From contig NC_049994.1 of NCBI RefSeq assembly GCF_000003815.2, positions 12,587,996-12,651,995 of the forward strand: a stretch of 64,000 nucleotides of DNA. The letters are read 5' to 3'. This DNA is from Branchiostoma floridae. Its lineage: Eukaryota > Chordata > Leptocardii > Amphioxiformes > Branchiostomatidae. The stretch's first letter is position 1. Each line of letters starts with the position of its first letter. The translations under genes and the position numbers were made by a program. The notes below the pieces were generated by a model that saw only the letters and a program-made list of their open reading frames with translations, was not told the origin of the DNA and ran no database searches. Positions 5,341 through 53,500 of this stretch are shown here, in pieces.

Positions 5341-6390
5341 TCAACGGTCACGCCTCAATTGGTACATATTGGTATGCAGCAACACAAAGACAACTTGTGA
5401 TGCCCAACTTGTAGTTTATTAACTTCCTTGCAAGTTCTGATTCCCGGGTTTATTGGAACCACATGTACTTGTTCGAGAGTAATAGGCACTGCGTGAGTCT
5501 TGCGGTCAAACTGGGTGTGTGCTTGCTTGCGAAACTTTTCCGTTTCGTGGGTTGTTCTTGAAGCGAAGGCCGCGGGTTTTGACCCCATTGTACTTCACAA
5601 ATATTGGAACATTCTTAACACCTGTGTGCCACAGTCCGACACTGTGTCGACGGTAACGTGGTGACCAAGAGGGGCCACAGAAATCAGGATGCAATTTATC
5701 AGAGCCTGTGTCGAGCTCTAGTCCCTCGGCGCTTTGATCAGTTCGTGCGACTGACACATTTGCTTTGAATCAAGTCCAAAGTAATGTGCCCAGAAATTTT
5801 GGGATCGTGTGTCCAGATGGTCTGACCGATAACGAACTCCCGCTGAAGGGTAGGTAACGGATGTTTTCTCTGCCGTCCTGGGTGGCACAGCGGCCACGGC
5901 CCCACTACTCTCCTGCTACCCACTGGTCATGCCGCAAGGTCGACAGGTGGATAGAGTAGAATGATAAATTATGATGTCAGGTAGCCTAAGACCCGGGCCT
6001 ATAAATAACAAAGAAGACAGACCCAGGACAGCCTCCTTCGCAAACTTCCAGAGCGGTTTTCTTTTCAGCGCTCTCCAACTGAGAAAAAAAACGCTTCCGC
6101 TCCAGAAATCTGCAACGAAGTATACTCTTCAGTTTNNNNNNNNNNNNNNNNNNNNNNNNNNNNNNNNNNNNNNNNNNNNNNNNNNNNNNNNNNNNNNNNN
6201 NNNNNNNNNNNNNNNNNNNNNNNNNNNNNNNNNNNAGTAATGACTGCTCGTATTGTCTTCAAGTACCGCAAAGTAAATTGAGTTTCAAATATTTGCGGAG
6301 GAATGGCGTGTTTCTCCAGGATCATGAGGATGGACGAGAGACATTTACTGAGTGACATTTCTGTTGTACATTTTTGTTTTCGATCTCCTT
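5341..6390. other. Gene-free stretch containing the assembly gap
   Basis: I see no exon, RNA gene or clear repeat in the readable sequence on either side of the N run. Open frames that cross the Ns are artefacts. Confidence 0.4.
6136..6235. other. Assembly gap of 100 N
   Basis: Exactly 100 N, the conventional length for a gap of unknown size. Sequence may be missing here, so the distance between cdk4/6 and the LINE is not certain. Confidence 0.99.
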
Positions 6391-8242
6391 CAATCAATCA
6401 ATCAATCAATCAATCAAATGGTTTATTCAGAATAAAAACAAGGCACTGGCAACCAGAGGTTGAATTACGGCCTTGTTGTACAGCACCTCTGTGCTACAAA
6501 TACAATAAAATCACGTTACATATATACGATACAATACAGTTGCATTGTTAACATTAATTTCCATTATTTTTGTTCAGCAGGCATATCATATATGGGATTG
6601 CACTTTTTTTGTAGCGCTCAGTTCTGGGTTTGACAGTGTCTAGTTGGTTGCTGGCCCTTGTGGCTCTCCCAGTGATAGCCCCCCGGGTTTGTGGTAGCCA
6701 GTGACGGAAGTCCGGTGACTGGAGGAGTTTCTGGGCGAACTGCAGGCAGAGGTGGTCTCTCCTTTGATCTAGGGTAGACAAGTTCAGAATCCGGCACGCC
6801 TCTGGGTATGAAGTGTAGGCAGAGCGGAGTATTATCCGACATGCGCGTTTCTGGATGAATTCGATCCTTCGTCGCTGTCTAGCAGTTAGTCCAGGATGCC
6901 AGGCAGGCGCTGCGTACTCACAGCTTGGACGGACGAATGTTTTGTAGCAGGTAAGTATGTCATCCCTAGACAGATCGAACTGGTTGAGTTGTTTAAGCAT
7001 AAATAGCTTTCGGTTGCCTTGTTTGACAATGTGGTCTACATGTGCGTTCCAACCAAGGTCAGCCTGGATGAACAAGCCGAGGAGTTTAACTATCTTGACC
7101 TCCTCTAACGGTTGGCCAGCAATAGACAGGGGTGGCAGTGGAAGGACTGTTCTCGTAAAGACCACGTGCATGGCTTTGCATTTTTGGGGGTGAAGTTTCA
7201 TCTTTCTTGTGGATGCCCATTGGTCGAGGCTGTTGAGGTCCGTTTGAATTGTTGAGGTGTCCCGGATCAACCTGCTCTCAGCTAAGTTAAGATCATCCAC
7301 GAACTTCCACCTCCTAGCAAGGGAATCCTCACTTGCACTGTTGATTAGAGCAAGGAAGATTAAGGGGCCTAACACTGTTCCTTGTGGTAGGCCACAGGTC
7401 GTCTCCCTCCAATCTGAATACGTTCCCTTGTACATCACTCTCTGCTTTCTAGTGGACAGGAACGAACATACCCATTTGGCGAGCGAGCTTCGTAGACCTG
7501 CTCCAAGTAGGCTTGAAATGGCTATGCTGTGGTCCACAAGGTCGAACGCCTTGGCAAAATCCGTAGTTATCAGCGTTGTTATTGTCTCCCTCTTATCTGC
7601 TGTTCTAGCCAGTTGGTCAATTAAATCAACGAGGCAGTGTGTCGTAGAACGACCTGGTATGCAACCAAACTGGTTTGGGTCAATGCTGTGCTTGATGTCA
7701 GAGTACAGATGTTTCGAGATGAAAGTTTCCGCTACTTTTGCTAGGGTAGGTGTCAGGGATATGGGTCTAAGTTCGCTGATCGACGGCGGGCGCGTTTTAG
7801 GTAGTGGTATGATATTTGCCTGTCGCCATTGTTCTGGGACGACCCCCTCCGATAGTGAGGCATTCAATATGGACGTTACTGGTGTAGAAATCTCATAGGC
7901 AAAGCACTTGATGATTCTGTTGGAAAGACCGTCCGGTCCTGCGGCTTTGTTCACTTTGACGTGTTTCAACTTTTCGTACACTTGCCACGGCTGCACCTCG
8001 TCCAAAGGCCTAGCTGGGAGAAATGTTGGTAGTCTAGTGTTGTCCAGTGGGTCGAGTGAGCAGGTTATTGTGCACAGAGCATTGTTTACTGCGTCAGCGA
8101 CAGCCTTGTTGTCTCCTGGTGGTGCACCTTCAACGTGGAGGGTGAGACCTGTTCCTGACGTGTTCGTCATGACCTTGATCTGCTGGTACCATGTCCTTAA
8201 GCTCCGTCTCTGACAAATCACCTTTTGAATCCAATAAAGGCT
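6391..8242 (-). mobile_element. 5'-truncated non-LTR retrotransposon (LINE, CR1/L2-like)
   Basis: On the minus strand the element runs from a 5' break near 8242 (in-frame stop at 8243-8245) through a long RT frame and a short 3' UTR to a simple-sequence tail at 6391-6417, seven or so units of (TTGA)n. A microsatellite tail in place of poly(A) and the reverse-transcriptase wording point to the CR1/L2 group. No apurinic-endonuclease domain is present, so the copy is 5'-truncated as usual for target-primed insertion. I could not identify a target-site duplication because the 5' boundary is unclear. Confidence 0.88.
6554..8221 (-). CDS. LINE reverse transcriptase, 5'-truncated but open frame
   Basis: A 555-codon frame without stops encodes a non-LTR reverse transcriptase. 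Visible in order: KVNKAAGPDGLSNRIIK, the LRPISLTP segment, the QFGCIPGRSTTHCLVDL motif, the first catalytic Asp in TTDFAKAFDLVDH, GLPQGTVLGPLIF, and the catalytic pair in WKFVDDLNL (FVDD in place of the commoner YADD/FADD). After these comes a C-terminal region with YKTFVRPSCEYAAPAWHPGL, typical of CR1/L2/jockey-type elements. The listed start is GTG inside the truncated frame, not a true start; the frame stays open seven codons further upstream. The absence of stops or frameshifts over 1.7 kb suggests a fairly recent insertion. It lacks the endonuclease, so it cannot act on its own. Confidence 0.9.
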   Translation of the reverse strand: MICQRRSLRTWYQQIKVMTNTSGTGLTLHVEGAPPGDNKAVADAVNNALCTITCSLDPLDNTRLPTFLPARPLDEVQPWQVYEKLKHVKVNKAAGPDGLSNRIIKCFAYEISTPVTSILNASLSEGVVPEQWRQANIIPLPKTRPPSISELRPISLTPTLAKVAETFISKHLYSDIKHSIDPNQFGCIPGRSTTHCLVDLIDQLARTADKRETITTLITTDFAKAFDLVDHSIAISSLLGAGLRSSLAKWVCSFLSTRKQRVMYKGTYSDWRETTCGLPQGTVLGPLIFLALINSASEDSLARRWKFVDDLNLAESRLIRDTSTIQTDLNSLDQWASTRKMKLHPQKCKAMHVVFTRTVLPLPPLSIAGQPLEEVKIVKLLGLFIQADLGWNAHVDHIVKQGNRKLFMLKQLNQFDLSRDDILTCYKTFVRPSCEYAAPAWHPGLTARQRRRIEFIQKRACRIILRSAYTSYPEACRILNLSTLDQRRDHLCLQFAQKLLQSPDFRHWLPQTRGAITGRATRASNQLDTVKPRTERYKKSAIPYMICLLNKNNGN

Positions 8243-17000: not shown

Positions 17001-20000
17001 GAGCCAAATAGCTGCTGCACAGAACCTGGGCGCCGACGACGGCCTGAAAAATGCTGCCAAATATCTGCAGGTATCTAAAGAAAAATAAATGGAAATAACA
17101 GCACTGTTCATTGCATATACATTACCTGTAATATGTTGTTAAGGTCAGGGTAGAGATTGGGATCTGGTACAATCAGCAGTTTCACCTCTAGAGATACTTA
17201 TCAGAACCTCTGCTACAATCAGGATGATAGAAATTCATTAGGGTGGTCTCCAATTTATAAATCCTCCATATGTAAATCCAAGTCAATCTATCGATGTGAA
17301 ATGACTCATGAGTCAAAATCAAAAACTGTCTTTTTAAGGCCCTGCTTGGATATCTTTGATTTTGCCATATGGTAGTCTCTACATGATATAATGATTTGTA
17401 CATGTTTGGTCTGCATAACCAGTCAAATGAGTAATTTTTTTGCAGTTCTTATATTTAATATGTTTATTTCAGCAAGCGGCTGGTGTGTTCACACACATCA
17501 AGGAGTCCATGGCAGGGCCCTTCCAACAGGTGGTGACCCCTGACCTCTCCCTGGAGATGCTGAGCACCCTGTCTGTTGTCATGTTGGCCCAGGCACAGGA
17601 GGCCATCCTGCTCAAGTCTATACAAGGTATGTACACAGCCAGGGAATGGGTTCTTGAATAGTTTCATCAGGTTGGTACGTCCAGGGAATGGATTTTTTTT
17701 TTGTGATGACTCTGAGGCAGAGCTGTTTTCTCAGATCTGAACTTTTTTTTGAAGGAGTTATAGCCAGTTGCTATGTTACAATGTGGGGCCGCGTAGCACA
17801 GTGGTAGTGTATTCAGCCTGTGACTGAGAGGTCGTCGGTTCGAATCCGCCTGCCGTGTTGCCGGTCTTGTGCCCTTGGGAAAGGCACTTTACACGACTTT
17901 TCTCACTTTACTCAAGTGAAAAATGAGTCGTCCCTCGGACAGGACGTTAAATGGAGGTCCCGTGTATGGGGAGATCCATACCCCATGCACGTTAAAGAAC
18001 CCCCACACGTGCGATGGTGCAGTGTGCGTTGGTGCAAATCCTTCTGTTGGAAGTTGGTGATTCACTTCAAATCACCCGGACGGGTGTGTCACCCCGTAAG
18101 GGGCGGTATAACCCGTCATTGTGCGAACATGTGCGAACATGTATATAGGGCTCCCTTGGAAATCAGTTACTACGTTAACTGAAGGGACTACCCCAAAGAT
18201 CAATAAATAAATAAATGAATAAAAAACAATGAGGGAGCTTCAGGTGTGCCCAACTGGCCGAGGCTTTTACAAGGCCAGGCCTCAGCTAGTTGGGCGACCT
18301 TGGCTGCCTGTATTGCCAGCCAAACAAATAGGTAACGTGCCCGTTAGATAAATAAATAGATAAGCTTCAGGTATGAAACTTCTCAACTGGATTATTCTTA
18401 GCGGGAGGTATAGAGGAGACCCGGTGAGCTTAGCTAAAAACATGAGCCGTAATGAAGCTGCATCAAGTAGACAGTATTTTTTTTCCTCTGGATTATTCTG
18501 GTGAGGTAAAGCAGTATGTAGTGAAAGAAAAGTCTGAACTGGACAGTGATGTAACACAGAAGCTTCAATTCCATGGTTGAATTTTATGTTGTTCTTTTGC
18601 AGACAAGATGAAGGAAGTCATCATCGCAAAGTTGTCCATGCAGGCGTCTGACTTGTACTCTGATGCCATGAAACAGGCACAGAACCCACACTTTGGAGAC
18701 TTACTCCCAAAGGTAACAACAATACCATTGTCTTAGATAATAACTGCCCAAGGCTATGGAGGATAGGGAAGGATGGAGGAAGAGAGTCATGGCCATCCGT
18801 GCAACCAGCACGTCCGGATGATGATGATGAGATAATGATGTGTTTTTGAAGTACTTAAAAGCAGAGGTGTCAAAGTTTAATTGTAACATGTGACACTGTT
18901 TGTGATAACAAGGGTTGTTTCAGACGTGTACAGTTTTCAATCTTAACTACATATGGTTGTCCCTTTAGATGTATAGGAGAGTTTTAGATATCCAATATCG
19001 GTATTCAATGTGATGATTTTACTGTCTCTATCCTTCAGGAGTGGATCCCAACCCTAGCTGGTAAACAGGCCATGTACCATGCCCAGGCTGAGTTCTACAT
19101 GTCACTTCTGGCCAAGAAGAACAAGAGCATTGGGGAGGAAATAGCCAGGCTCAAGGTAGGGTCCATTTAATCAAGGAGACAGAAACTTTGTCTTTAGAGA
19201 CAGTTAAACTTGAGAGACAGCAAATTCATATAACATATCAAATTCAATAGATCCAGAAGGCAGAGGTTTGAATGCAGGAATTGTACATGGGTATTGTATG
19301 AGGGATAGAAAAAAAAGTACTTGTCTCAAGCATTATGTTTCGAGTTGGCGAGTTGGACCTGCCTGTGTGTGTGTGCTGTTTGTTGGTATTTAAGTGTCAC
19401 GTAAATATTTTTGTATATATGATGATTTTGGAAACAGTCAGATGTTTCAGACATCATCCATTATCTTTCGTCAGTGACACTGAAGATATCTTGTTGGAGA
19501 GCATCTTTTATATGCTAACGCTAAATCCCAAGTACTATTTGGCATATCTTATTACCTGAATGCATAACCTTCATAAACGTTTTCTCCATTTATCTTCTCA
19601 GCATGCCCTAGAGCTGGCAAAGACCGGTAGCAGCAGAGCAGGTTCGACCATGGACATGAAAGACTTCATCGGTAAACTCCAGCGTGCGCACGACTCTGCC
19701 GACAAGGACAACAACTTCATCTACCATGACCGCGTACCGGAACTCAGCAACCTGCCTGCCATTGGTCGAGCTGTTGTGGCCAAGGCTTTGCCTCTCTCCA
19801 AACCCATGAATCCCAAGTTTACTGGTACTGGTCTAGTTCCAGATCATTCTTTATTGATAATCATATCTTTGGTCATATGTTGAAAATTAAAATCCAGTTC
19901 ATGCCAGCTATGTTCCTGGTCATTTTACCCGAACATAGGGGCGTTGTCCAGTAAATTTTCAGATCTAAATCCAAATAACATTGTGGTATATGAAATTGAC

Positions 20001-35095: not shown

Positions 35096-35794
35096 ATGGC
35101 CGCCGTGAACGGTTCGCAAACCGTGTCTGATGTAGAAGTCTGTAACCTGGCCTTCCAAGGCAACGCTGGCCGTCTGAAGGAGAAAATCACGGAGAACAGA
35201 AACTTGGTGAACGTTACAGACCAGGACCGACGCATCCCTCTTCACTGGGCGGCGTCCGCGGGGCAGAAAGAGGTGGTCGACTTGCTGTTGGAATATCAAG
35301 CCGACGTCCAGGCTCGAGACGATGTCAACTGGACGCCTCTACACATCGCAGCCTCTGCTGGTCACCGGGATATCTGCACGGCTTTCATCGCACACGGGGC
35401 GCAAGTCAACGCCGTCAACAACACCGGACAGACTCCACTGCACTACGCCTCCTCACGCAACAGGATTGAGATCGCCGACAGCTTGCTGACCCAAGGCGCT
35501 GACCCCAACGCTGCTGACCAGTACGGGGCAACGCCACTTCACCGTGCAGCGTCCAGAGGGAACGTGAGAGTTCTGACCATGCTGCTTGACCATCAGGGTC
35601 AGGTCAATGCCAAGGATGGCCAAGGAAACACCCCCTTGCACCTAGCGTGCGAAGAGAACTTGCCCGAGGTCGCCAAGTTGCTGGTTGAGAACCACGCGAG
35701 TCTTCACGTCAAGAACAAAGAGGAGCGCACCCCTCTGGATCTCGCAGAAAAGTCTTTTGGAAGGTTGCTAGAAAGAATGAGTAATGAACAATAG
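35096..35794 (+). CDS. psmd10: Gankyrin / 26S proteasome non-ATPase subunit 10 (single exon)
   Basis: Gankyrin is an assembly chaperone of the 26S proteasome base (it holds the Rpt3 ATPase) and in vertebrates binds CDK4, Rb and MDM2. The 232-aa product (human 226) consists of about seven ankyrin repeats from residue 12 to the end: DQDRRIPLHWAASAGQKEVV, NWTPLHIAASAGHRDI, GQTPLHYASSRNRIEI, GATPLHRAASRGNVRV and GNTPLHLACEENLPEV. The Rb-binding LxCxE motif is present as LACEE (183-187). The start ATG is in a strong context (acaacATGG). Human and other animal genes have several introns, while this frame is uninterrupted, so the copy may come from an old retroposition or wholesale intron loss. There are no disabling changes. 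AATAAA at 36171-36176 is a likely poly(A) signal. Confidence 0.96.
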   Translation: MAAVNGSQTVSDVEVCNLAFQGNAGRLKEKITENRNLVNVTDQDRRIPLHWAASAGQKEVVDLLLEYQADVQARDDVNWTPLHIAASAGHRDICTAFIAHGAQVNAVNNTGQTPLHYASSRNRIEIADSLLTQGADPNAADQYGATPLHRAASRGNVRVLTMLLDHQGQVNAKDGQGNTPLHLACEENLPEVAKLLVENHASLHVKNKEERTPLDLAEKSFGRLLERMSNEQ

Positions 35795-40674: not shown

Positions 40675-43600
40675 ATGAGCCGACAGACGATAAGCGGGAA
40701 GCCGAACCGGCACACGCCCACGAGCAGCGCCACATCGACCCAGGACCTGGCGGGGCTGTTTGAGTGTCCGGTGTGCTTCGACTACGTCCTCCCCCCCATC
40801 CTACAGTGCCAGAGTGGACATCTGGTGTGTTCCAGCTGCAGACCTAAACTCTCATGCTGTCCAACATGCAGAGGACCACTGGGTAGGGGGCCTTGGATTT
40901 TTTGTATTGTTTATTCTGGTATTTTGATGAACAAGACAAGTGAATAGGAAGTCTTGGACTTCTTTCCCTCTTTTCATAAATATTGCTTTCAGATTGTAGT
41001 GTTCAAATATGCAAAATACCAGAGGGTCAAAGGCAACGATCAGCACCCGCTTCCACTAGATGGCAATTTACCACTGAACCACCAAACATATGACAAGTTG
41101 CACATGGAATTTTATGGATAAAGAGCTTATCTTTTTTGGTTTCTTGTCTTATTTAGATCATATTCCAATTATAAAATCACGCAAATTTTGGGTTCAACGG
41201 TTGTTGATTATGGTTGCAGCAATTACTGTCAATTACCATGGATGATTGTTTAAAAGTGGCTTTTCTATGGTGGTTATCATCATCAAATTATCAAGGTTTT
41301 TATTATTAAATATAAGACTTAGAGGCATATGAATTGTTTTCATAATCGTTGTTCTTGATGCCACCGTTTCCACCTTCTGTAAACTGTAAGTTGCCTTTTT
41401 GCTACTTTACAATTGCTCATGTTTTCACATGTTCTTCTTGTACTTCTAGGCAACATCAGAAACCTGGCCATGGAGAAGGTAGCGAGCACAGTCATGTTCC
41501 CCTGCAAGTACGCGTCGGCAGGGTGTCCTGTTACATTGTTGCACACAGGTAAGGTCACAGGTCAGCAGTAGGATGATGCATTCTTGGCAACACCACAAGG
41601 GCTTAGCCTTTATTGGTCCTTACTCCATTGTATTTGGATTGGATTTACAGGGCTGGAAATACCACATGCATGTGCAGGTAAAATTGGAGCTGTGCAGGTA
41701 TTTCTGATGTCTACCTGCACTTAACCTGCACTGGTCCATGTACTGGGTTTTATACATACTGTAATTCACTTTATCTTCACGGTACCAAATTTTCACGGTC
41801 TGAGAAAATTGAACTTGTTCTCGGAACTAAATGTTCACTGTCGAGGCAAGTGCGCATGAAAAAAGTCTGTGAATTATTTTTTATCGGTAATGATAAGTTC
41901 ACGTTAAAGTCGTCACCGTGAAAACCGTGAACATAACATTACAGTGAAAAAATCAGGAATTACAGTAAATGTCCTGTGATGTAGGTGCATGTGGATTGTT
42001 ATTAACTGCACTGACTGTTACCATCTATGAAGTATAAGAAAAAATGAATGAATTTGGTATGATCCATACTTAAATAAATTCAAAGTGGTGCAGGTAATTT
42101 TAATGTTACCTGCAAGCCCTGATTTATGATAAAAGAAATAACTCAATTTTGTGTTGTACACTTAAAATGTGTATGGAAGACATGTATTCATTTTGTATCA
42201 AAATATGTATCCTCAATACTGTAATAGAAAGGATATGGTCTGGCTGTATGTCTGGATGACTTACTTGAATGTCACAGAATCCGTCTGTGGTAAGTTGATA
42301 AGTTCTAAAGCCACTGTTTCTGCTTTCACTTGTATTCTTCAGAAACAACACTAGAGCTGTAAAATTCATCTTTTTAACTTTCATCTAGCCAAAGGATTCG
42401 TCTGCTATGCTTAGTCTTGACTTGTTATGCAGGTAGTCTCATACTCTGATTTAGAAATAGGACAATCGATACATGTATTGATGGTTGTTTTTCTCCCCTA
42501 ACAGAAAAGCCAGACCACGAGGAGATCTGTGACTTCAGACCGTACTCGTGCCCGTGTCCGGGGTCCTCCTGTAAGTGGCAGGGTTCACTGGACGCAGTCA
42601 TGCCACACCTGACACACGCACACAAGTCCATAACAACACTACAAGGTTAGTCACTGTTTCCTTTTTTACCTAACTCTTGTGTGGTACTGTTTTTGGTTCG
42701 CCTGCTTGTCTGTATGGGATCATGTGGTGTAATTAGCTCAGGAGAAATTGTTTGGCTCTGGAATAGGTTCTGGGTTCGAAATTTTAAGGGTTAAGGCACA
42801 TAACAATACTTTCCTTACTTCACTCAGGTGAAAATGAGTACCTATCTTCGGTTAGGATCGTCCCTCAGATAAGACGTAAAAAGGAGGTATTCCGTACACC
42901 ACTTACTTACTTTCTAATTAGCCTTCAGGCATGATCGCTTGCAATAAAGTTGTTATAATTATTATGTGAATTAAGAACCCCTATCAAACATTTCCACACC
43001 TGTTCCCTACAGGAGAGGACATCGTGTTCCTGGCCACAGACATCAACCTGCCTGGGGCTGTGGACTGGGTCATGATGCAGTCCTGCTTCGGACACAACTT
43101 CATGTTAGTCCTGGAGAAACAGGAGAAGTATGATGGGCACCAGCAGTTCTTCGCTATCGTACAGCTAATAGGTACCAGAAAACAGGCTGAGAACTTTGCC
43201 TACAGGTAACTACCACCAGCAGTTCTTCGCTATCGTACAGCTAATAGGTACCAGAAAACAGGCCGAGAACTTTGCCTACAGGTAACTACATGTACTACCA
43301 GTAGTTCTTTGCTATCGTACAGATAATTATAGGTACCAGAAAACAGGCCGAGAACTTCGCCTACAGGTAACTACCACCAGCAGTTCTTCGCTATCGTACA
43401 GCTAATTATAGGTACCAGAAAACAGGCCGAGAACTTTGCCTACAGGTAACTACCACCAGCAGTTCTTCGCTATCGTACAGCTAATAGGTACCAGAAAACA
43501 GGCTGAGAACTTTGCCTACAGGTAACTACCACCAGCAGTTCTTCGCTATCGTACAGCTAATTATAGGTACCAGAAAACAGGCCGAGAACTTTGCCTACAG

Positions 43601-44369
43601 GTAACTACATGTACTACCTGTAGTTCTTCGCTATCGTACAGCTATTAGGTACCAGAAAACAGGCCGAGAACTTTGCCTACAGGTAACTACACGTACTACC
43701 TGTAGTTCTTCGCTATCGTACAGCTATTAGGTACCAGAAAACAGGCCGAGAACTGTACTGCATCCTCATTCTCTTACCACACACCCCTATACCCAGGGGA
43801 CAGATTTTCTGACAAGCATAGTATTTTGATTCACCAGGTATGCTACTTCTTTGATGTCTTCAACTGTATCCTCTCTGGCAGTAATCCCCCTTAAGAAGCA
43901 TTAAAATGCAGTTCTTCACTATCGTGCAGCTAATAGGTACCAGAAAACAGGCCAAGAACTTTGCCTACAGGTGACTACCACTAGCGGTTGGTTGTTTTGC
44001 AGCATGTTGTATTAGCTATGCCATGGGTTATGTAGTTGGGTAACTTGGAAAAGGTTCAGTAAGACAGAGAGATCACTGAAAAAAACCTCAAACATAAACC
44101 ACTGCAACTCTCAAGTTTTTCTGCAGTCATCAACTCAGGTGGATGTGTACCCATATCACCATGGTAACCACGATTGTCCTTCCCCTTCCAGACTGGAGTT
44201 GAACGGCCACCGGCGAAGACTGACATGGGAAGCCACGCCCAGGTCAATCCACGAGGGCGTGGCGTCCGCCATCAGCAGTAGCGACTGCCTGGTGTTCGAC
44301 ACCAACATCGCCAGACTCTTCGCAGATAACGGGAACCTAGGAATCAATGTCACCATCTCTACCTGCTGA
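40675..44369 (+). CDS. siah: SIAH-type RING E3 ubiquitin ligase (5 coding exons)
   Basis: SIAH (seven in absentia homolog) transfers ubiquitin from an E2 to substrates that bind its TRAF-like domain. Exons: 40665-40882 (ATG at 40675), 41450-41548, 42505-42645, 43013-43205, 44192-44369; 819 nt, 272 aa (human SIAH1 282). The RING domain occupies about 31-66: [40 protein letters not shown], with all eight zinc ligands. Two SIAH zinc fingers follow ([30 protein letters not shown]). The substrate-binding domain includes [40 protein letters not shown] and [12 protein letters not shown] at the end. MSRQ at the start matches the SIAH1 N-terminus; the upstream in-frame TTG is not a start. Exon 4 is followed by a minisatellite built from its own 3' end. 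Confidence 0.97.
41757..41967. mobile_element. Diverged TACTGTAA-ended MITE-like element
   Basis: It starts TACTGTAATTCACTTTATC and ends GGAATTACAGTA; inner phrases ttttcacggtctgag and ccgtgaaaaccgtgaac form imperfect inverse arms. It lies in SIAH intron 2. Confidence 0.5.
42735..42905 (+). mobile_element. Decayed SINE fragment
   Basis: gggttcgaa, gttaaggcacataac, ctcaggtgaaaatgagtacc and ggatcgtccctcagataagacgt follow the order of the SINE at 17787-18220 at clearly lower identity. It lies in SIAH intron 3. Confidence 0.5.
43138..43760 (+). repeat. 74-82 bp minisatellite built from the SIAH exon 4 end and its donor
   Basis: The last ~68 bp of exon 4 plus the first bases of the intron (from caccagcagttcttcgctat through tttgcctacaggtaactac) are repeated. 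Counting the exon itself there are eight units to 43760, with an isolated ninth at about 43909-43983. Two unit types alternate, one with gctaatagg and one with gctaattatagg. Most units keep the tacag|gtaact donor. Reading through the first donor gives an immediate TAA. Confidence 0.9.
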
Positions 44370-48600: not shown

Positions 48601-49751
48601 CTTTCATTTCATGTGGTCTTGTTACTGTTTCTAGTCCTAAGAACTCTAGGTGTATACTTGCATGTAATCTTCATTTCTGTAAATAATAGAAAAAATGGTC
48701 CTTCAAATGTTCAATAAAGCACATCAGTGTTCAAGTTAAATACTTCGACAAGCCTTCCTTTGCCAGTCCATTCACATTCATGTATTTCTTGCTTTGTCAG
48801 AATTTGGTACCAGTGCTTTAGTTTAAGTAGTAAAACATTTTATAGAAGATAAAACAAAAGTCAAAGGACTGCATCGATGTTTTATCAAACCATCCATGTT
48901 TAATTAGTGAAGCCATTTCCAATATCAATCCAGTTGATTGAAACTTACAATGAATATGGTAAATGATACATTCCATTCACACTACAAGACAGTCATATGT
49001 TCGTTAGATAACTGTTAATCTTCATTTGATCTCTGTAAAGAAAATGGGAATTGGACCTATATTGTACAGTACATCTGTGGAAAGATTCTTTCCTTCCCTA
49101 TTGGGCTACCTTGTCATATGATGATAATATCTGATGACATGCAAGCTGCCTACTATCTTTCAAACATGTAGGTTATTACTACATCAAATAAGTTAACATG
49201 AATTCTGAATCTTGCTCCACATGTTGTATCATCTTCATATCACTAAGACACAATGTTAGCAAAGTTGCACTAGCTACAGTCTTAGGCATGAGAGTCACAT
49301 TTAACGTTCAAAGATAGCTCTTACAATGTCCTTCACAGAAAGAATCAAGAACTGACTGTTCTTATCCATCTACTCAAATTACATCACAGGTTAATAACTC
49401 AGTGGTTATCTACAACTAATTACTAATCGTACTCTTGTTCATTTCCAGAACACTAAATTAACTACTAACCAATGGTCAAAACACCATCACTTAATGTTGC
49501 ATTGCAACATAGTCAGAAACTGTATACACTACAGGTAAAACCGGACATACACAAATTTCTAGATATACTGAACTTCTTTTGTCTCTTGTGTTCCTCCGAC
49601 ACCGATCCTCCAAGAGGTGGCTCCCGTGATACGGTACCTGAGGACCTGGTGTCAATTTTCATTTCAGTGTCTACACCATTTTACATTGAGACAGATACCT
49701 TCAAAGATGGCAGAGCCATCCTTCTCAGCAGCCATCATCCTACGTTCAGAC

Positions 49752-49815
49752 ACCCCTATGTTCCCACACCCCTACGTACATGTACATACATGTAGGGGCG
49801 TGGGAACATAGGGGT
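49752..49815. repeat. 24-bp stem hairpin
   Basis: ACCCCTATGTTCCCAC pairs with GTGGGAACATAGGGGT (16 bp, perfect), then one A/C mismatch, then CCCCTAC with GTAGGGG (7 bp), around a 16-nt loop of GTACAT repeats. The stem is more GC-rich and more perfect than its surroundings. It may be a foldback element or a small-RNA precursor; I see no flanking duplication. Confidence 0.6.
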
Positions 49816-50129: not shown

Positions 50130-53100
50130 TTACGGGATGTCGCATGTGGAGCGGACCAGCCTGTTGAACTGGTGATGCACGTCCGTCACCACGCGCTCGA
50201 AGTCCCGGATGAGCAGGTAATGCCTGACGTCAGTGTCCATCCCGGGGTCGGCGGTAGGGATGGGGCTGGGCGGGGTGCTGTTACTGTGTTCTAGTGTGAT
50301 ACCCAGCATGGTGGCCTGTGGAGGGATTTCAAAGACTTTATGACAACTGCTATCTCCTTGTATGATATTGCCGACTTCTTAGTTCATTGCCTTGAAGTCG
50401 TCTAAAGACCTTGCTCTGAACGATCTCGTTAAGAAAATGAGTAAACAAACACCCATAACTTGAGCAATACGCATTCACTGTAGCAACATCACTCATCATC
50501 AAAAACGTTTGTTAACATTGGTCGTGAATGGAGTTGTTCGCTTATAGTGTTAAAGAAACTCTTTGCAACGTCGCTAAAGTCTACTAGTATGTTCATTTTT
50601 CGTAAAGAACTCTCGAACAACATATTAGACTGACCCCTCAACTCATATTGACAACGCTGTGAGTTGTGTGAACATACCTAGGATTAGGTCTTTTCCAAAT
50701 AGGTTGTCCAGATTCTGTTTGAGTAGATACCACCTTTACTTATTACCGGTACCGCGGTATGCGTAAAGTTTCGGCAATTTTCGAACGCATACACTCACTA
50801 GACTAGCCTATATCAAAATTCGTGTTATTCGGTCGAAGTAGTGACAGATAGAATAAATGAAAACTACCCAATGGATTACCAATGGAATCTAATATGTTGA
50901 CAGGTGATCACTATAGACAGAGTTCTTAATGCTTCAACGAGAAACATATGTTTAATAGTGACCACCGTCAAGTTGTGACGCGTACAGGTTTGATAGTATG
51001 GTTATCTCGTCCATCTGTCCTTACCGCTACTCTCACAGCAAGGATGATCTTCCTGGTGTAGTCAATGACCCTCTGTAGTTTCCTCATCAGCTCGGGGTCC
51101 CAGCCACCCTCTGCCCGGGACGAGACCAGCAGCTCACGGAACATCATCAGCTGGTTCTCTACCCACACCAACCTGCCCTCGTCCTGTAACACAACACACG
51201 CAGCGTTAGAAACACTGACATTTTTTACCTTTGCCAAGAAGGTTGTGTTTTCTGTAGCGTCTGTGTGACTGTGTACATGTGTGCGCGCGTGTGGTGTGTG
51301 TGTGTGTGTGTGGATGGACAGCATAAATTGAGAATGCTTTGATGGATTGTGTTCATGTTTCGTATGTGAGTAGGTCTTCATGAGATCTTGAAATGATTAG
51401 ATTTTGCACCCCTTAACGGTTTGTTACAGTATATACAGGGTGAATGTTGTGTTAGGTAATGTAACTAGTAAACTTCCCAATATATATATGAGCAAATGTT
51501 AGTGAAGGTTTAATCAGCTTACCGTTAGATTGTCTCGCTGGTTGAAGGTCTGTGAGAGGCTGGGAAACAGCGTGGGGAGGTCCTGGTCATCTGGGTCCAC
51601 CTGGATACAGGCAAGTAATGAAGATATAATTACGATTTTGCTGCAAAGTGCGCATGCGACGACATCAGGGAATGGACAGGTACATCACTAGCTGACTGTA
51701 CTCAGAAGGCGATCGCGAAGAACAGGGAAGTACGGAGAGGATAGTGCTGGAGGCAACCATGGTCCCCTCAGCCCTCTAGATGAGGGTGAGACGAGGTGAG
51801 GTGAGGCTAACGGACATTGGTAATATCAAATAGTCCGACAACCCACACATCCTTGAACATATGAGGATCTAGAGACCTACCGGAATGGAGTCGCGAAGAC
51901 GAGTGACACACCCCCGAAATCTGATGGCCAGCTGACTGTTGATCTCCATCTGCCTGCAGGGTGTTCTGTCCCGCTTGTGTCTGACCGGCACAGCGTCGGC
52001 CTGCACCGCTACCAGCAGGCAGAGCGCCGCACAAAGAGCCACGGTGGAAACTGTGGGGCATAGAACATCGGTCAAGCTTAGGATGCGTAAGATTGGGGGA
52101 AAACGATGATCCCGACTGAAACTCGTGAAGAGACAAGTCGTCTTCCGAAGTACATTTTTCATGTACACAACATGAAAACTGTAAACGCGCAAGAGTAGGG
52201 AAGACACGACTTTGTTTCGAGATGATTGCGATTAAAGCTTGTGAACGGACAAGCCCTCTTACTAGGCTAGCACTATGGCAGCAAGTCCATCTGCCTTATG
52301 CCACGATCAAAGTGAAAGTCTTCTATATATAAAAAAGGATAGGGAAAACACAGCAAAATGTGTATAAACATGTTAGAAAATTACGTAGATGTGATGCATG
52401 TGAATGGCTATGCGTCATAAATTCCTATCGTATTGAGATATCACACTTCATGTATGTGGTTGCAACGTCGGGGAAGTGTTCCGCAAGGATTTATTCTCGG
52501 CCCTAATTATCATCGGAATGTCGCCAGCACTGTTTATTTTGTAAACTTACAAACTATATCATTTCTGTTTGGTACATTCAAGGACGTTATAAAAAGATTT
52601 ATATAACGTCCTTGGTACATTCTTGTGATGCTGTATTCATAGAGACCCTCAACATCAGTTTTATATCTAGTTAACGTGAAGACATTCTTGGTCGGACAAA
52701 CCTCATTCTTTGTGCTACCCAGGCCAGATGCACCATTCCTCGCTAGCGCGCTTTTGAATCTATTCTGCCCTACTCAGATTTCAATCGATTTTGATGGTAA
52801 GAAGTGCAAAAGCAAGTTCCGTCTCCGAAATGGATGTGCAAAAGGAAAGAGTAATTTCTATATTGAGAAGGGACAATGACGACCATATTCTCCAGCGTAC
52901 AGAAGCCACAATAAATGTACTTTTTTTCATAAGCGTTTGATATACAAAGGTGACTGACAGTTAAGAACCAGCGATGATGTCATAATGGAATTTGTGACTC
53001 ATCGTGATGCGTCACTGAGGAAACGTTGAGCAGAAAAAAGAGAACACAGAAGAGATAATTTTGTTATGTATTGTTTTAAACAATTGAATTAACCTTTTCA

Positions 53101-53500
53101 GAATGTTTTGTTGCTGTTGATCGTTAATGTTAGATTACTCCTGCGACTGTTGAAAACTCGAAACACACAATTGAATGATCACCATAGCGATCTGCGGATA
53201 CTTATGAAATGCAAAAACATCACATAATCTGTTTTGAATGCCGTAAAGCATATATATTCATACAAACGTCTTCAGTATATCATAAAGATGACAGGCGACT
53301 GACACATTTTTTCTGTCCTAACTTTTTTTGTTGATGCGTATATATGTGCATCTCGTAAAGCAAAGTGTCTCAGTAGGTTAACACATGCACAACGCATTAA
53401 AAGAGACACCTGTATGTTTAAAAGGTAGATATTTTCGATGCACCGCTACGAGGATTAAGGCACATTTTAAAGAAGGATTCCTACCTTGTCCTTGCTGCAT
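50130..53500 (-). CDS. Secreted four-helix protein, candidate long-chain class I cytokine (5 exons)
   Basis: Exons on the minus strand: 53500-53485, 52050-51881, 51600-51523, 51183-51025, 50315-50130. They total 609 nt and 202 aa, all with GT/AG junctions and intron phases 1, 0, 0, 0. Residues 1-25 form a signal peptide (hydrophobic STVALCAALCLLVAVQADA), followed by a dibasic KR at 31-32. I predict helix A at about 38-61, helix B at 90-112 (LVWVENQLMMFRELLVSSRA), helix C at 118-149 (ELMRKLQRVIDYTRKIILAV) and helix D at 168-196 (YLLIRDFERVVTDVHHQF). The loops hold N-glycosylation sites NLT (86-88) and NST (153-155). Mature cysteines are 37, 53 and 199; a 37-199 bond would join the start of A to the end of D as in EPO and TPO. 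A tiny first exon, A on exon 2, the AB loop on exon 3, B and C on exon 4 and D on exon 5 is the GH/IL-6/G-CSF/EPO plan. The helix D wording resembles IL-6 and IL-23A (LxxRxF). Family assignment is inference from architecture; overall sequence identity is low. Confidence 0.75.
51290..51313. repeat. (GT)n microsatellite
   Basis: A gtgtggtgtgtgtgtgtgtg run in intron 3 of the cytokine-like gene. Confidence 0.85.
52579..52614. mobile_element. CAAGG palindromic micro-element, copy 4 (CAAGGACG subtype)
   Basis: CAAGGACGTTATA and its inverse TATAACGTCCTTG enclose ten bases. It is flanked by a perfect GTACATT duplication (52572-52578 and 52615-52621); counting shared end bases the duplication reads 9 bp, GGTACATTC. 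It lies in intron 1 of the cytokine-like gene. Confidence 0.75.

What the first reader, a model, noticed from the sequence alone, without database searches (positions are those of the whole stretch)
50130..53500. A likely long-chain class I helical cytokine gene
Seen directly: signal peptide, 202 aa, five exons with phases 1-0-0-0, a 16-nt coding first exon, a TATA box, two N-glycosylation sites, and sequence compatible with four amphipathic helices split among exons as A / AB loop / B+C / D. Known: IL-6, G-CSF, GH, EPO and TPO genes share this exon and phase plan, and their sequences diverge too fast for ordinary searches. Inference: this is a four-helix cytokine, closest in helix D wording (LLIRDFERVV) to the IL-6/IL-23A group. 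Such ligands are poorly documented outside vertebrates.
Basis: partly seen in the sequence, partly recalled or inferred. Interest (0 to 1): 0.93.

Follow-up and report, generated by a model that had tools for sequence, protein, structure and literature searches.

The report
Amphioxus IL-6/IL-12-type cytokine gene
A small gene near the Hox cluster of what looks like an amphioxus genome encodes a probably secreted helical protein that resembles, distantly, the vertebrate IL-6/IL-12 family of immune messengers, whose ligands have been reported mainly from vertebrates.

Summary
The gene model holds: minus strand, five exons (16/170/78/159/186 nt), phases 1-0-0-0, four GT-AG introns, 202 aa, a signal-peptide-like start, an RHKR site, a TATA box 71 nt before the ATG. 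In exons 2-5 the annotated frame has the best codon score of the three sense frames, 4 of 4. The window is C16:12.59-12.65 Mb of a 513-Mb genome with one Hox-like and one ParaHox-like cluster: an amphioxus, probably B. floridae (inferred).

The cytokine reading holds in the parts tested. Exon 4 alone is predicted as a helical hairpin (pLDDT 91.9); exon 5 as a loop and one long helix. Among 23 typed proteins the best matches are human IL-27A and IL-11, within the range of true family pairs; five control proteins stay at z 1.30 or below. A helix-B pattern is shared with IL-6, G-CSF, IL-12A, IL-23A, IL-27A and IL-11 (post hoc). The gene lies 2 Mb from the Hox cluster.

Against: no Pfam or PDB sequence match; hhalign probabilities are low (9% at best). 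The whole bundle was not folded, receptors could not be searched, no transcript was seen. Verdict: probable IL-6/IL-12-superfamily ligand outside vertebrates.

The parts
53485..53500 (-). coding exon 1 (16 nt, MQQGQ + first base of codon 6); intron 1 phase 1
51881..52050 (-). exon 2 (residues 6-62): rest of signal peptide (cleavage likely after A25, by eye), RHKR furin-type site (29-32), C37, proposed helix A (about 38-61, C53)
   Evidence: helix A not folded, its amphipathicity not above shuffles
51523..51600 (-). exon 3 (residues 63-88): AB loop with N-glycosylation motif N86
51025..51183 (-). exon 4 (residues 89-141): predicted helices B (90-112) and C (118-140); helix-B pattern L..[ILV]...L..[FY]...[LFVM] at residues 93-107
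   Evidence: AlphaFold2 of this exon alone: hairpin, mean pLDDT 91.9, pTM 0.69; pattern
50130..50315 (-). exon 5 (residues 142-202 and stop): CD loop with N153 motif, predicted helix D (165-199), C199
   Evidence: AlphaFold2 of this exon alone: loop then helix, mean pLDDT 74.9, pTM 0.39, ten-residue blocks of 88 and 96 in the helix
53566..53571 (-). TATAAA, starts 71 nt upstream of the ATG
   Evidence: given there as distance from the ATG

Best explanation
The gene encodes a secreted four-helix cytokine of the long-chain class I kind, belonging to or very near the IL-6/IL-12 superfamily, in a cephalochordate. Mechanism: a TATA promoter drives a short mRNA; the product enters the secretory pathway through its signal peptide, may be trimmed at RHKR, is N-glycosylated at N86, and folds as an up-up-down-down bundle (long AB and CD loops, short BC turn), possibly closed by a C37-C199 disulfide. 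It then binds gp130-like class I receptors on other cells and signals through JAK-STAT. Shown here: gene model, coding frame, predicted helices in exons 4 and 5, similarity to IL-27A/IL-11 above shuffles, Hox linkage. Inferred: species, whole fold, disulfide, cleavage, glycosylation, receptor and pathway.
For: Coding frame and gene model. Exon 4 hairpin and exon 5 helix: a short B-C turn (5 residues) and a long C-D loop (24). Pairwise shuffles: IL-27A z 6.3-7.3 with 0 of 1000 shuffles reaching it under each of three scoring schemes; IL-11 z 4.5-6.4 with 3, 0 and 0 of 1000; five controls (ferritin, myoglobin, apoA-I and the class II cytokines IFN-alpha2 and IL-10) never above 1.30. Shuffles keeping regional composition: IL-27A 1 of 400, IL-11 0 of 400 (global). 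Calibration: 55 pairs within the IL-6/12 family have median z 1.64 and reach 15; 55 family-versus-control pairs reach at most 2.5. Profile comparison with the IL-27A pair: E 0.0036, 0 of 60 shuffles. BLASTP of the two mature sequences alone: E 4e-4. 2.0 Mb from the Hox cluster on a 19.2-Mb chromosome, 3.7% of the genome.
Against: No Pfam cytokine model matches and no cytokine chain appears in a PDB sequence search. hhalign's own probability is low: 9.0% for the IL-27A pair, 3.0% for the 11-member superfamily (E 0.015, 1 of 60 shuffles), and the IL-11 pair, the CNTF group and the IL6/GCSF/IL23A/IL12A group are at shuffle level (9, 15 and 12 of 60). The IL-27A match is confined to 42-43 residues. 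The IL-6 score (58-61 under BLOSUM45) is no better than that of the reversed candidate (57-60). TPO reaches z 2.7 and 3.06 (global). A genome-wide search with human IL-27A does not return this gene; its 8 hits (E 0.26-4.1) all cover query residues 83-156, which hold the poly-Glu stretch. The cysteines (C37, C53, C199) do not match the IL-6/G-CSF pairs as I recall them. The helix-B pattern was written after looking at these sequences. Foldseek matches to the exon-4 hairpin are unspecific. Moments of helices A and B are not above shuffles.
Confidence: 0.7

Rival explanations
1. A long-chain class I helical cytokine that belongs to no named vertebrate subfamily: a cephalochordate-specific branch, with the IL-27A/IL-11 similarity reflecting only the shared superfamily fold.
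For: No paralogue found in the genome (E up to 10); different scoring schemes favour different relatives; cysteine set unlike the named families (recalled); PMC9010856 (passages) says several divergent type-I helical cytokine-related genes exist in amphioxus; low hhalign probabilities.
Against: IL-27A and IL-11 scores are above the median of true within-family pairs, while GH/EPO/TPO/leptin/PRL stay at z 2.7 or below (TPO 3.06 in the global run).
Confidence: 0.17
2. It is the amphioxus GH-like hormone (GHl) or a close copy of it.
For: GHl is a 208-aa type-I helical cytokine of amphioxus (PMC9010856, passages); similar size; vertebrate GH genes share the exon plan (recalled).
Against: Published B. 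japonicum GHl primers P19/P20 (PMC5376476, table passage) have no match with up to 3 mismatches in the window, and their best match in this CDS is at shuffle level (13 of 25 and 14 of 23). GH1 z at most 1.97, PRL 1.38. The GHl locus itself could not be placed in this genome: that search did not complete.
Confidence: 0.03
3. A secreted helical protein that is not a cytokine (hormone-binding, antimicrobial or structural) and resembles one by composition.
For: Only weak similarity; a helical hairpin is a generic fold; Pfam's only hit is a sub-threshold defensin propeptide over residues 8-37 (E 0.022, 15.5 bits against a cut-off of 23.6).
Against: Residue-level scores beat composition shuffles; exon/phase plan, loop pattern, helix-B pattern and Hox linkage agree.
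Confidence: 0.08
4. Not a gene: a chance set of open exons.
Against: Four of four exons in the best sense codon frame, GC contrast, GT-AG at all four introns, hydrophobic leader continuing across intron 1, TATA box.
Confidence: 0.02

Closest known systems
IL-27A (p28), vertebrate IL-12/IL-6 superfamily
   Same: Best pairwise and profile match; 33% identity over 43 residues of the AB loop and helix B; helix-B pattern; helix D aligns
   Different: No poly-Glu CD loop; different cysteines; 22% identity overall in a multiple alignment; no partner EBI3-like chain was sought
IL-11
   Same: Second-best match, from the end of helix A through the AB loop to the Pro-rich CD loop
   Different: Profile comparison at shuffle level (9 of 60); the mature human sequence used has no Cys, this protein has three
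IL-6 / G-CSF (CSF3) / IL-23A
   Same: Helix-B pattern and helix D wording; linkage to Hox (HOXA/HOXB/HOXC linkage of these human genes is recalled, not from a call)
   Different: Pairwise z only 2.9-3.2 (IL-6, no better than the reversed sequence), 0.7-2.6 (G-CSF), -0.7 to 0.3 (IL-23A); lacks their disulfide pattern (recalled)
Amphioxus GH-like hormone GHl
   Same: Amphioxus, type-I helical cytokine, about 200 aa (PMC9010856, passages)
   Different: Primer sequences do not match; GH1/PRL similarity weak
Drosophila Unpaired ligands / Domeless (abstracts in the listing)
   Same: An invertebrate secreted ligand acting through a gp130-like receptor and JAK-STAT is the same proposed mechanism
   Different: No sequence comparison made here

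Membership tests
Long-chain class I helical cytokine | Secreted: N-terminal signal peptide, no other membrane segment | tested here: inconclusive
   Hydrophobic leader read by eye in exons 1-2; no signal-peptide or membrane program was run
Long-chain class I helical cytokine | Five coding exons with phases 1-0-0-0 (as in GH, IL-6, G-CSF, EPO; recalled) | tested here: met
   the reference plan is recalled (a paper search for it gave nothing used)
Long-chain class I helical cytokine | Four-helix up-up-down-down bundle | tested here: inconclusive
   Helices B, C and D predicted in separate folds of exons 4 and 5; helix A and the assembled bundle not folded
Long-chain class I helical cytokine | Binds a class I (WSXWS) receptor and signals by JAK-STAT | not testable with these tools
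   Needs experiment; the genome search for receptors (PF09240) did not complete
IL-6/IL-12 superfamily | Pairwise sequence similarity above shuffles and controls | tested here: met
   IL-27A and IL-11; not met for LIF, CNTF and IL-23A taken singly
IL-6/IL-12 superfamily | Profile similarity | tested here: inconclusive
   IL-27A pair E 0.0036, 0 of 60 shuffles, but probability 9%; 11-member profile E 0.015, 1 of 60, probability 3%
IL-6/IL-12 superfamily | Recognised by the curated family models (Pfam) | tested here: not met
   no cytokine family up to E 10 (HMMER filters hide most matches above about 0.1)
IL-6/IL-12 superfamily | Helix-B pattern L..[ILV]...L..[FY]...[LFVM] | tested here: met
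   candidate and 6 of 6 of IL-6/G-CSF/IL-12A/IL-23A/IL-27A/IL-11, but 0 of 5 of CLCF1/CNTF/CTF1/LIF/OSM; pattern is post hoc; 4 matches in 41,054 residues of window frames, this gene included
IL-6/G-CSF/IL-23A ohnologue group | Linkage to a Hox cluster (recalled for the human genes) | tested here: met
IL-6/G-CSF/IL-23A ohnologue group | Two conserved disulfides in the A-B region (recalled for IL-6 and G-CSF) | tested here: not met
   Only C37, C53, C199 outside the signal peptide
Amphioxus GHl | Contains published GHl primer sites | tested here: not met
   primers are from another species, B. japonicum

The most novel reading that the evidence does not exclude
This is the single amphioxus descendant of the pre-duplication gene that gave the Hox-linked IL-6, G-CSF and IL-23A genes (and, further out, IL-27A and IL-11) to vertebrates: an IL-6/IL-12-superfamily ligand outside vertebrates, still beside Hox and CDK4/6, and the missing ligand for invertebrate-chordate gp130-like receptors.
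Probability: 0.28. Interest if true: 0.85.

Novelty: new member of a known kind. Interest (0 to 1): 0.67.

Why it matters
gp130-like receptors are reported in invertebrate chordates (Ciona, PMC1963337; amphioxus IL6R-type receptors are implied by PMC13203501; passages read in both), but a 2026 BLAST survey found IL-6 only in vertebrates (PMC13203501, passages). A ligand gene in amphioxus, at a fixed address near the Hox cluster, would make the origin of the IL-6/IL-12 system directly testable: fold, receptor pairing and expression on infection can be checked in an animal that, to common knowledge, lacks vertebrate-type adaptive immunity and the vertebrate whole-genome duplications. It also suggests that exon/phase plan, single-exon folding and paralogon position can find cytokines that family models miss.

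Tried and rejected
Protein database search: switched off for this query, so that search could not be made. Pfam and PDB by sequence: no cytokine. Foldseek of the exon-4 hairpin: 87 matches up to E 10 (50 shown), none at or below 0.001, unspecific. Reverse search with human IL-27A: 8 hits, all over the part with poly-Glu. Two of the 8 were read: L006 is a TTC run that reads poly-Glu on the matched strand, and L008 has the same flank and a Phe run on the strand translated (its check failed because the file was not held). The apparent global IL-6 match is an offset artefact and was not used. Identity with GHl: rejected on primers, though the GHl locus was not found in the genome. First impression of a CLCF1/CNTF affinity: dropped (CLCF1 z 0.9-2.4, CNTF below 0). 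EPO/TPO affinity suggested by the C37-C199 pair: EPO z at most 1.7, TPO -0.06 to 2.7. Papers: nine searches; I saw capped listings (for example 20 of 36, 30 of 1,080, 20 of 159), and none of the listed titles or abstract starts named such an amphioxus gene. The library lacks most subscription papers. PMC9010856 mentions unnamed further helical-cytokine genes in amphioxus, which may include this one.

Full report
What is there. Codon scores trained on 585 codons of neighbouring conserved genes put the annotated frame first among the three sense frames in 4 of 4 of exons 2-5; in exon 3 one antisense frame is slightly higher (0.49 against 0.47). The mean of 0.45 bits per codon lies between the 95th (0.37) and 99th (0.54) percentile of 1095 stop-free 50-codon stretches of the window. 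Exons 2-5 are 58-62% GC, introns 39-49%. A TATAAA starts 71 nt before the ATG. The signal peptide (likely to A25), the RHKR site (29-32), N86 and N153 are read by eye or by pattern. N153 is followed by Pro and may be unused.

Where it is. The window is C16:12,587,996-12,651,995 of a 513,431,437-base genome in 431 contigs. An Antp-class homeodomain gives 43 listed hits in that genome (a lower bound by the tool's own words): 14 lie on C16 between 10.16 and 10.64 Mb, with the four best at 10.46-10.58 Mb; three lie on C7 at 10.65-10.69 Mb and look like ParaHox; others lie on C1, C4, C8 and C13 and elsewhere on C16. Naming the clusters Hox and ParaHox is my inference from identity and clustering. 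One of each and a genome of this size mean an amphioxus, probably B. floridae. The species name is inferred and the size match is recalled; PMC7269912 (passages) gives 19 chromosomes for B. floridae and says Hox lies on CLGB, and the number 513 does not occur in its held text. The candidate is 2.0 Mb from the Hox cluster on a chromosome of 19.15 Mb, 3.7% of the genome. Human IL6, CSF3 and IL23A lie on HOXA, HOXB and HOXC chromosomes, and CDK4 near IL23A (all recalled). Here a CDK4/6 exon (best PDB match CDK6, E 4.3e-34) is in the same window. Other neighbours: a BRO1-domain exon, Alix-like (E 1.2e-8, just under Pfam's cut-off), PSMD10, a Sina-type E3, a PCTP-like exon (E 0.0016). A paper search for the IL6/CSF3/IL23A-Hox linkage found nothing usable.

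Paralogues. The whole protein searched against the genome at E up to 10 returns only its own four larger exons.

Fold evidence. Predicted alone and without an alignment, exon 4 is a helical hairpin, pLDDT 91.9, pTM 0.69, helices at residues 90-112 and 118-140. Exon 5 is a loop and then one helix at 165-199, mean pLDDT 74.9, pTM 0.39, with ten-residue means of 88 and 96 in the helix. So the B-C turn is 5 residues and the C-D loop 24, as expected of an up-up-down-down bundle. Helix A and the assembled bundle were not tested. Amphipathic moments are at shuffle level for proposed helix A (460 of 2000) and B (1702 of 2000) and above it for C (121 of 2000) and D (12 of 2000). A hairpin is too generic for a fold search: 87 Foldseek matches, none at E 0.001 or better.

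Relatives. I compared the mature protein with 23 typed proteins, two of which (human IL-27A, IL-11) were confirmed against PDB chains. Over three scoring schemes with 1000 shuffles each, human IL-27A gives z 6.68, 7.31, 6.31 (0, 0, 0 shuffles reach it; reversed candidate 33, 47, 50 against 59, 90, 98), mouse IL-27A 6.32, 6.76, 6.21, human IL-11 4.52, 5.58, 6.41 (3, 0, 0), mouse IL-11 3.05-4.16, CT-1 3.42-4.22, IL-6 2.91-3.18. For IL-6 the reversed candidate scores almost the same (38, 57, 60 against 42, 58, 61), so that match carries no weight. G-CSF is 0.73-2.57, CLCF1 0.88-2.43, IL-12A 1.22-2.40, OSM 1.04-1.84; IL-23A, LIF and CNTF are at or below 0.72. TPO reaches 2.70, GH1 1.97, EPO 1.66, PRL 1.38, leptin stays below 0. 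The five controls (three unrelated helical proteins and two class II cytokines) stay at or below 1.30. In the global run TPO reaches 3.06. Shuffling within 10-residue blocks leaves IL-11 at 0 of 400 and IL-27A at 1 of 400 (global). For calibration, 55 pairs within the IL-6/12 family have median z 1.64 and range up to 15; 55 family-control pairs reach at most 2.5; 55 pairs of that family with GH/PRL/EPO/TPO/leptin reach at most 3.5. Profile comparison: IL-27A pair E 0.0036, 0 of 60 shuffles, probability 9.0%; 11-member superfamily E 0.015, 1 of 60, probability 3.0%; LIF/OSM 1 of 60; IFN-alpha2 5 of 60; the IL-11 pair (9 of 60), CNTF group (15), IL6/GCSF/IL23A/IL12A (12), GH/PRL (45), EPO/TPO (16), leptin (29), IL-10 (23), ferritin (51), apoA-I (43) and myoglobin (24) at shuffle level. 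BLASTP of single pairs: E 4e-4 for IL-27A over 43 residues, 0.011 for IL-11 over 28. In a six-sequence alignment helix D lines up with IL-27A, IL-6 and IL-23A. A helix-B pattern occurs in IL-6, G-CSF, IL-12A, IL-23A, IL-27A and IL-11 (mouse IL-27A and IL-11 too) and in the candidate, and in none of the other 15 typed proteins; 24 of 5000 shuffles contain it, and it occurs 4 times in 41,054 residues of the window's open frames, this gene included. I wrote the pattern after seeing these sequences, so it is a description and not an independent test.

Against. No curated family model and no PDB sequence search sees it. Human IL-27A used as a genome-wide query does not return it; the similarity spans the exon 3/4 junction, which an exon-by-exon search cuts, so this is weak evidence either way. 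The cysteine set differs from IL-6/G-CSF as recalled. No transcript was available. The receptor search in the genome did not complete.

Known or new. Amphioxus GHl, a 208-aa type-I helical cytokine with GH-like activity, is known (PMC9010856, PMC5376476; passages read). Its primers do not fit this gene. PMC9010856 also says several other genes related to type-I helical cytokines exist in amphioxus; the passage names none. PMC13203501 (passages) reports IL6 only in vertebrates by BLAST at 30% identity and E 1e-5, a threshold that this gene, at E 4e-4 with its best relative, would not pass; it also implies amphioxus IL6R-type receptors. PMC1963337 (passages) reports a gp130-like receptor in Ciona. 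So the kind is known; a ligand of the IL-6/IL-12 side in amphioxus was not named in the capped listings I saw.

Verdict. Coding gene: nearly certain (0.98, all readings but the chance one). Long-chain class I cytokine: likely (0.90, the 0.70, 0.17 and 0.03 readings together). Within or beside the IL-6/IL-12 superfamily: 0.70. Direct descendant of the pre-duplication IL-6/G-CSF/IL-23A gene: 0.28.

Noticed in passing
window 6557-8242 (-): Reverse transcriptase frame of 562 codons (RVT_1 E 2.9e-27), a LINE-type element; a 100-base run of N (6136-6235) lies some 320 bases away.
   Followed up: partly
window 35096-35791 (+): PSMD10 (gankyrin) homologue as one uninterrupted frame of 232 codons from the ATG; the human gene has introns (recalled), so this may be an intron-poor or retroposed copy.
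   Followed up: partly
window 40693-43203 (+): Sina/SIAH-type E3 ligase exons (Sina_RING E 1.2e-17, Sina_TRAF E 6.5e-16); a similar end of the TRAF part recurs at 43706-43891 (by eye), perhaps a partial duplication.
   Followed up: partly
window 49750-49815: Near-perfect inverted repeat, MITE-like, 3' of the cytokine gene (read by eye).
   Followed up: no
window 17787-17858 (+): Rfam tRNA match (37.2 bits) that ARAGORN, run with the bacterial code, does not call; tRNA-like, possibly a SINE head.
   Followed up: no
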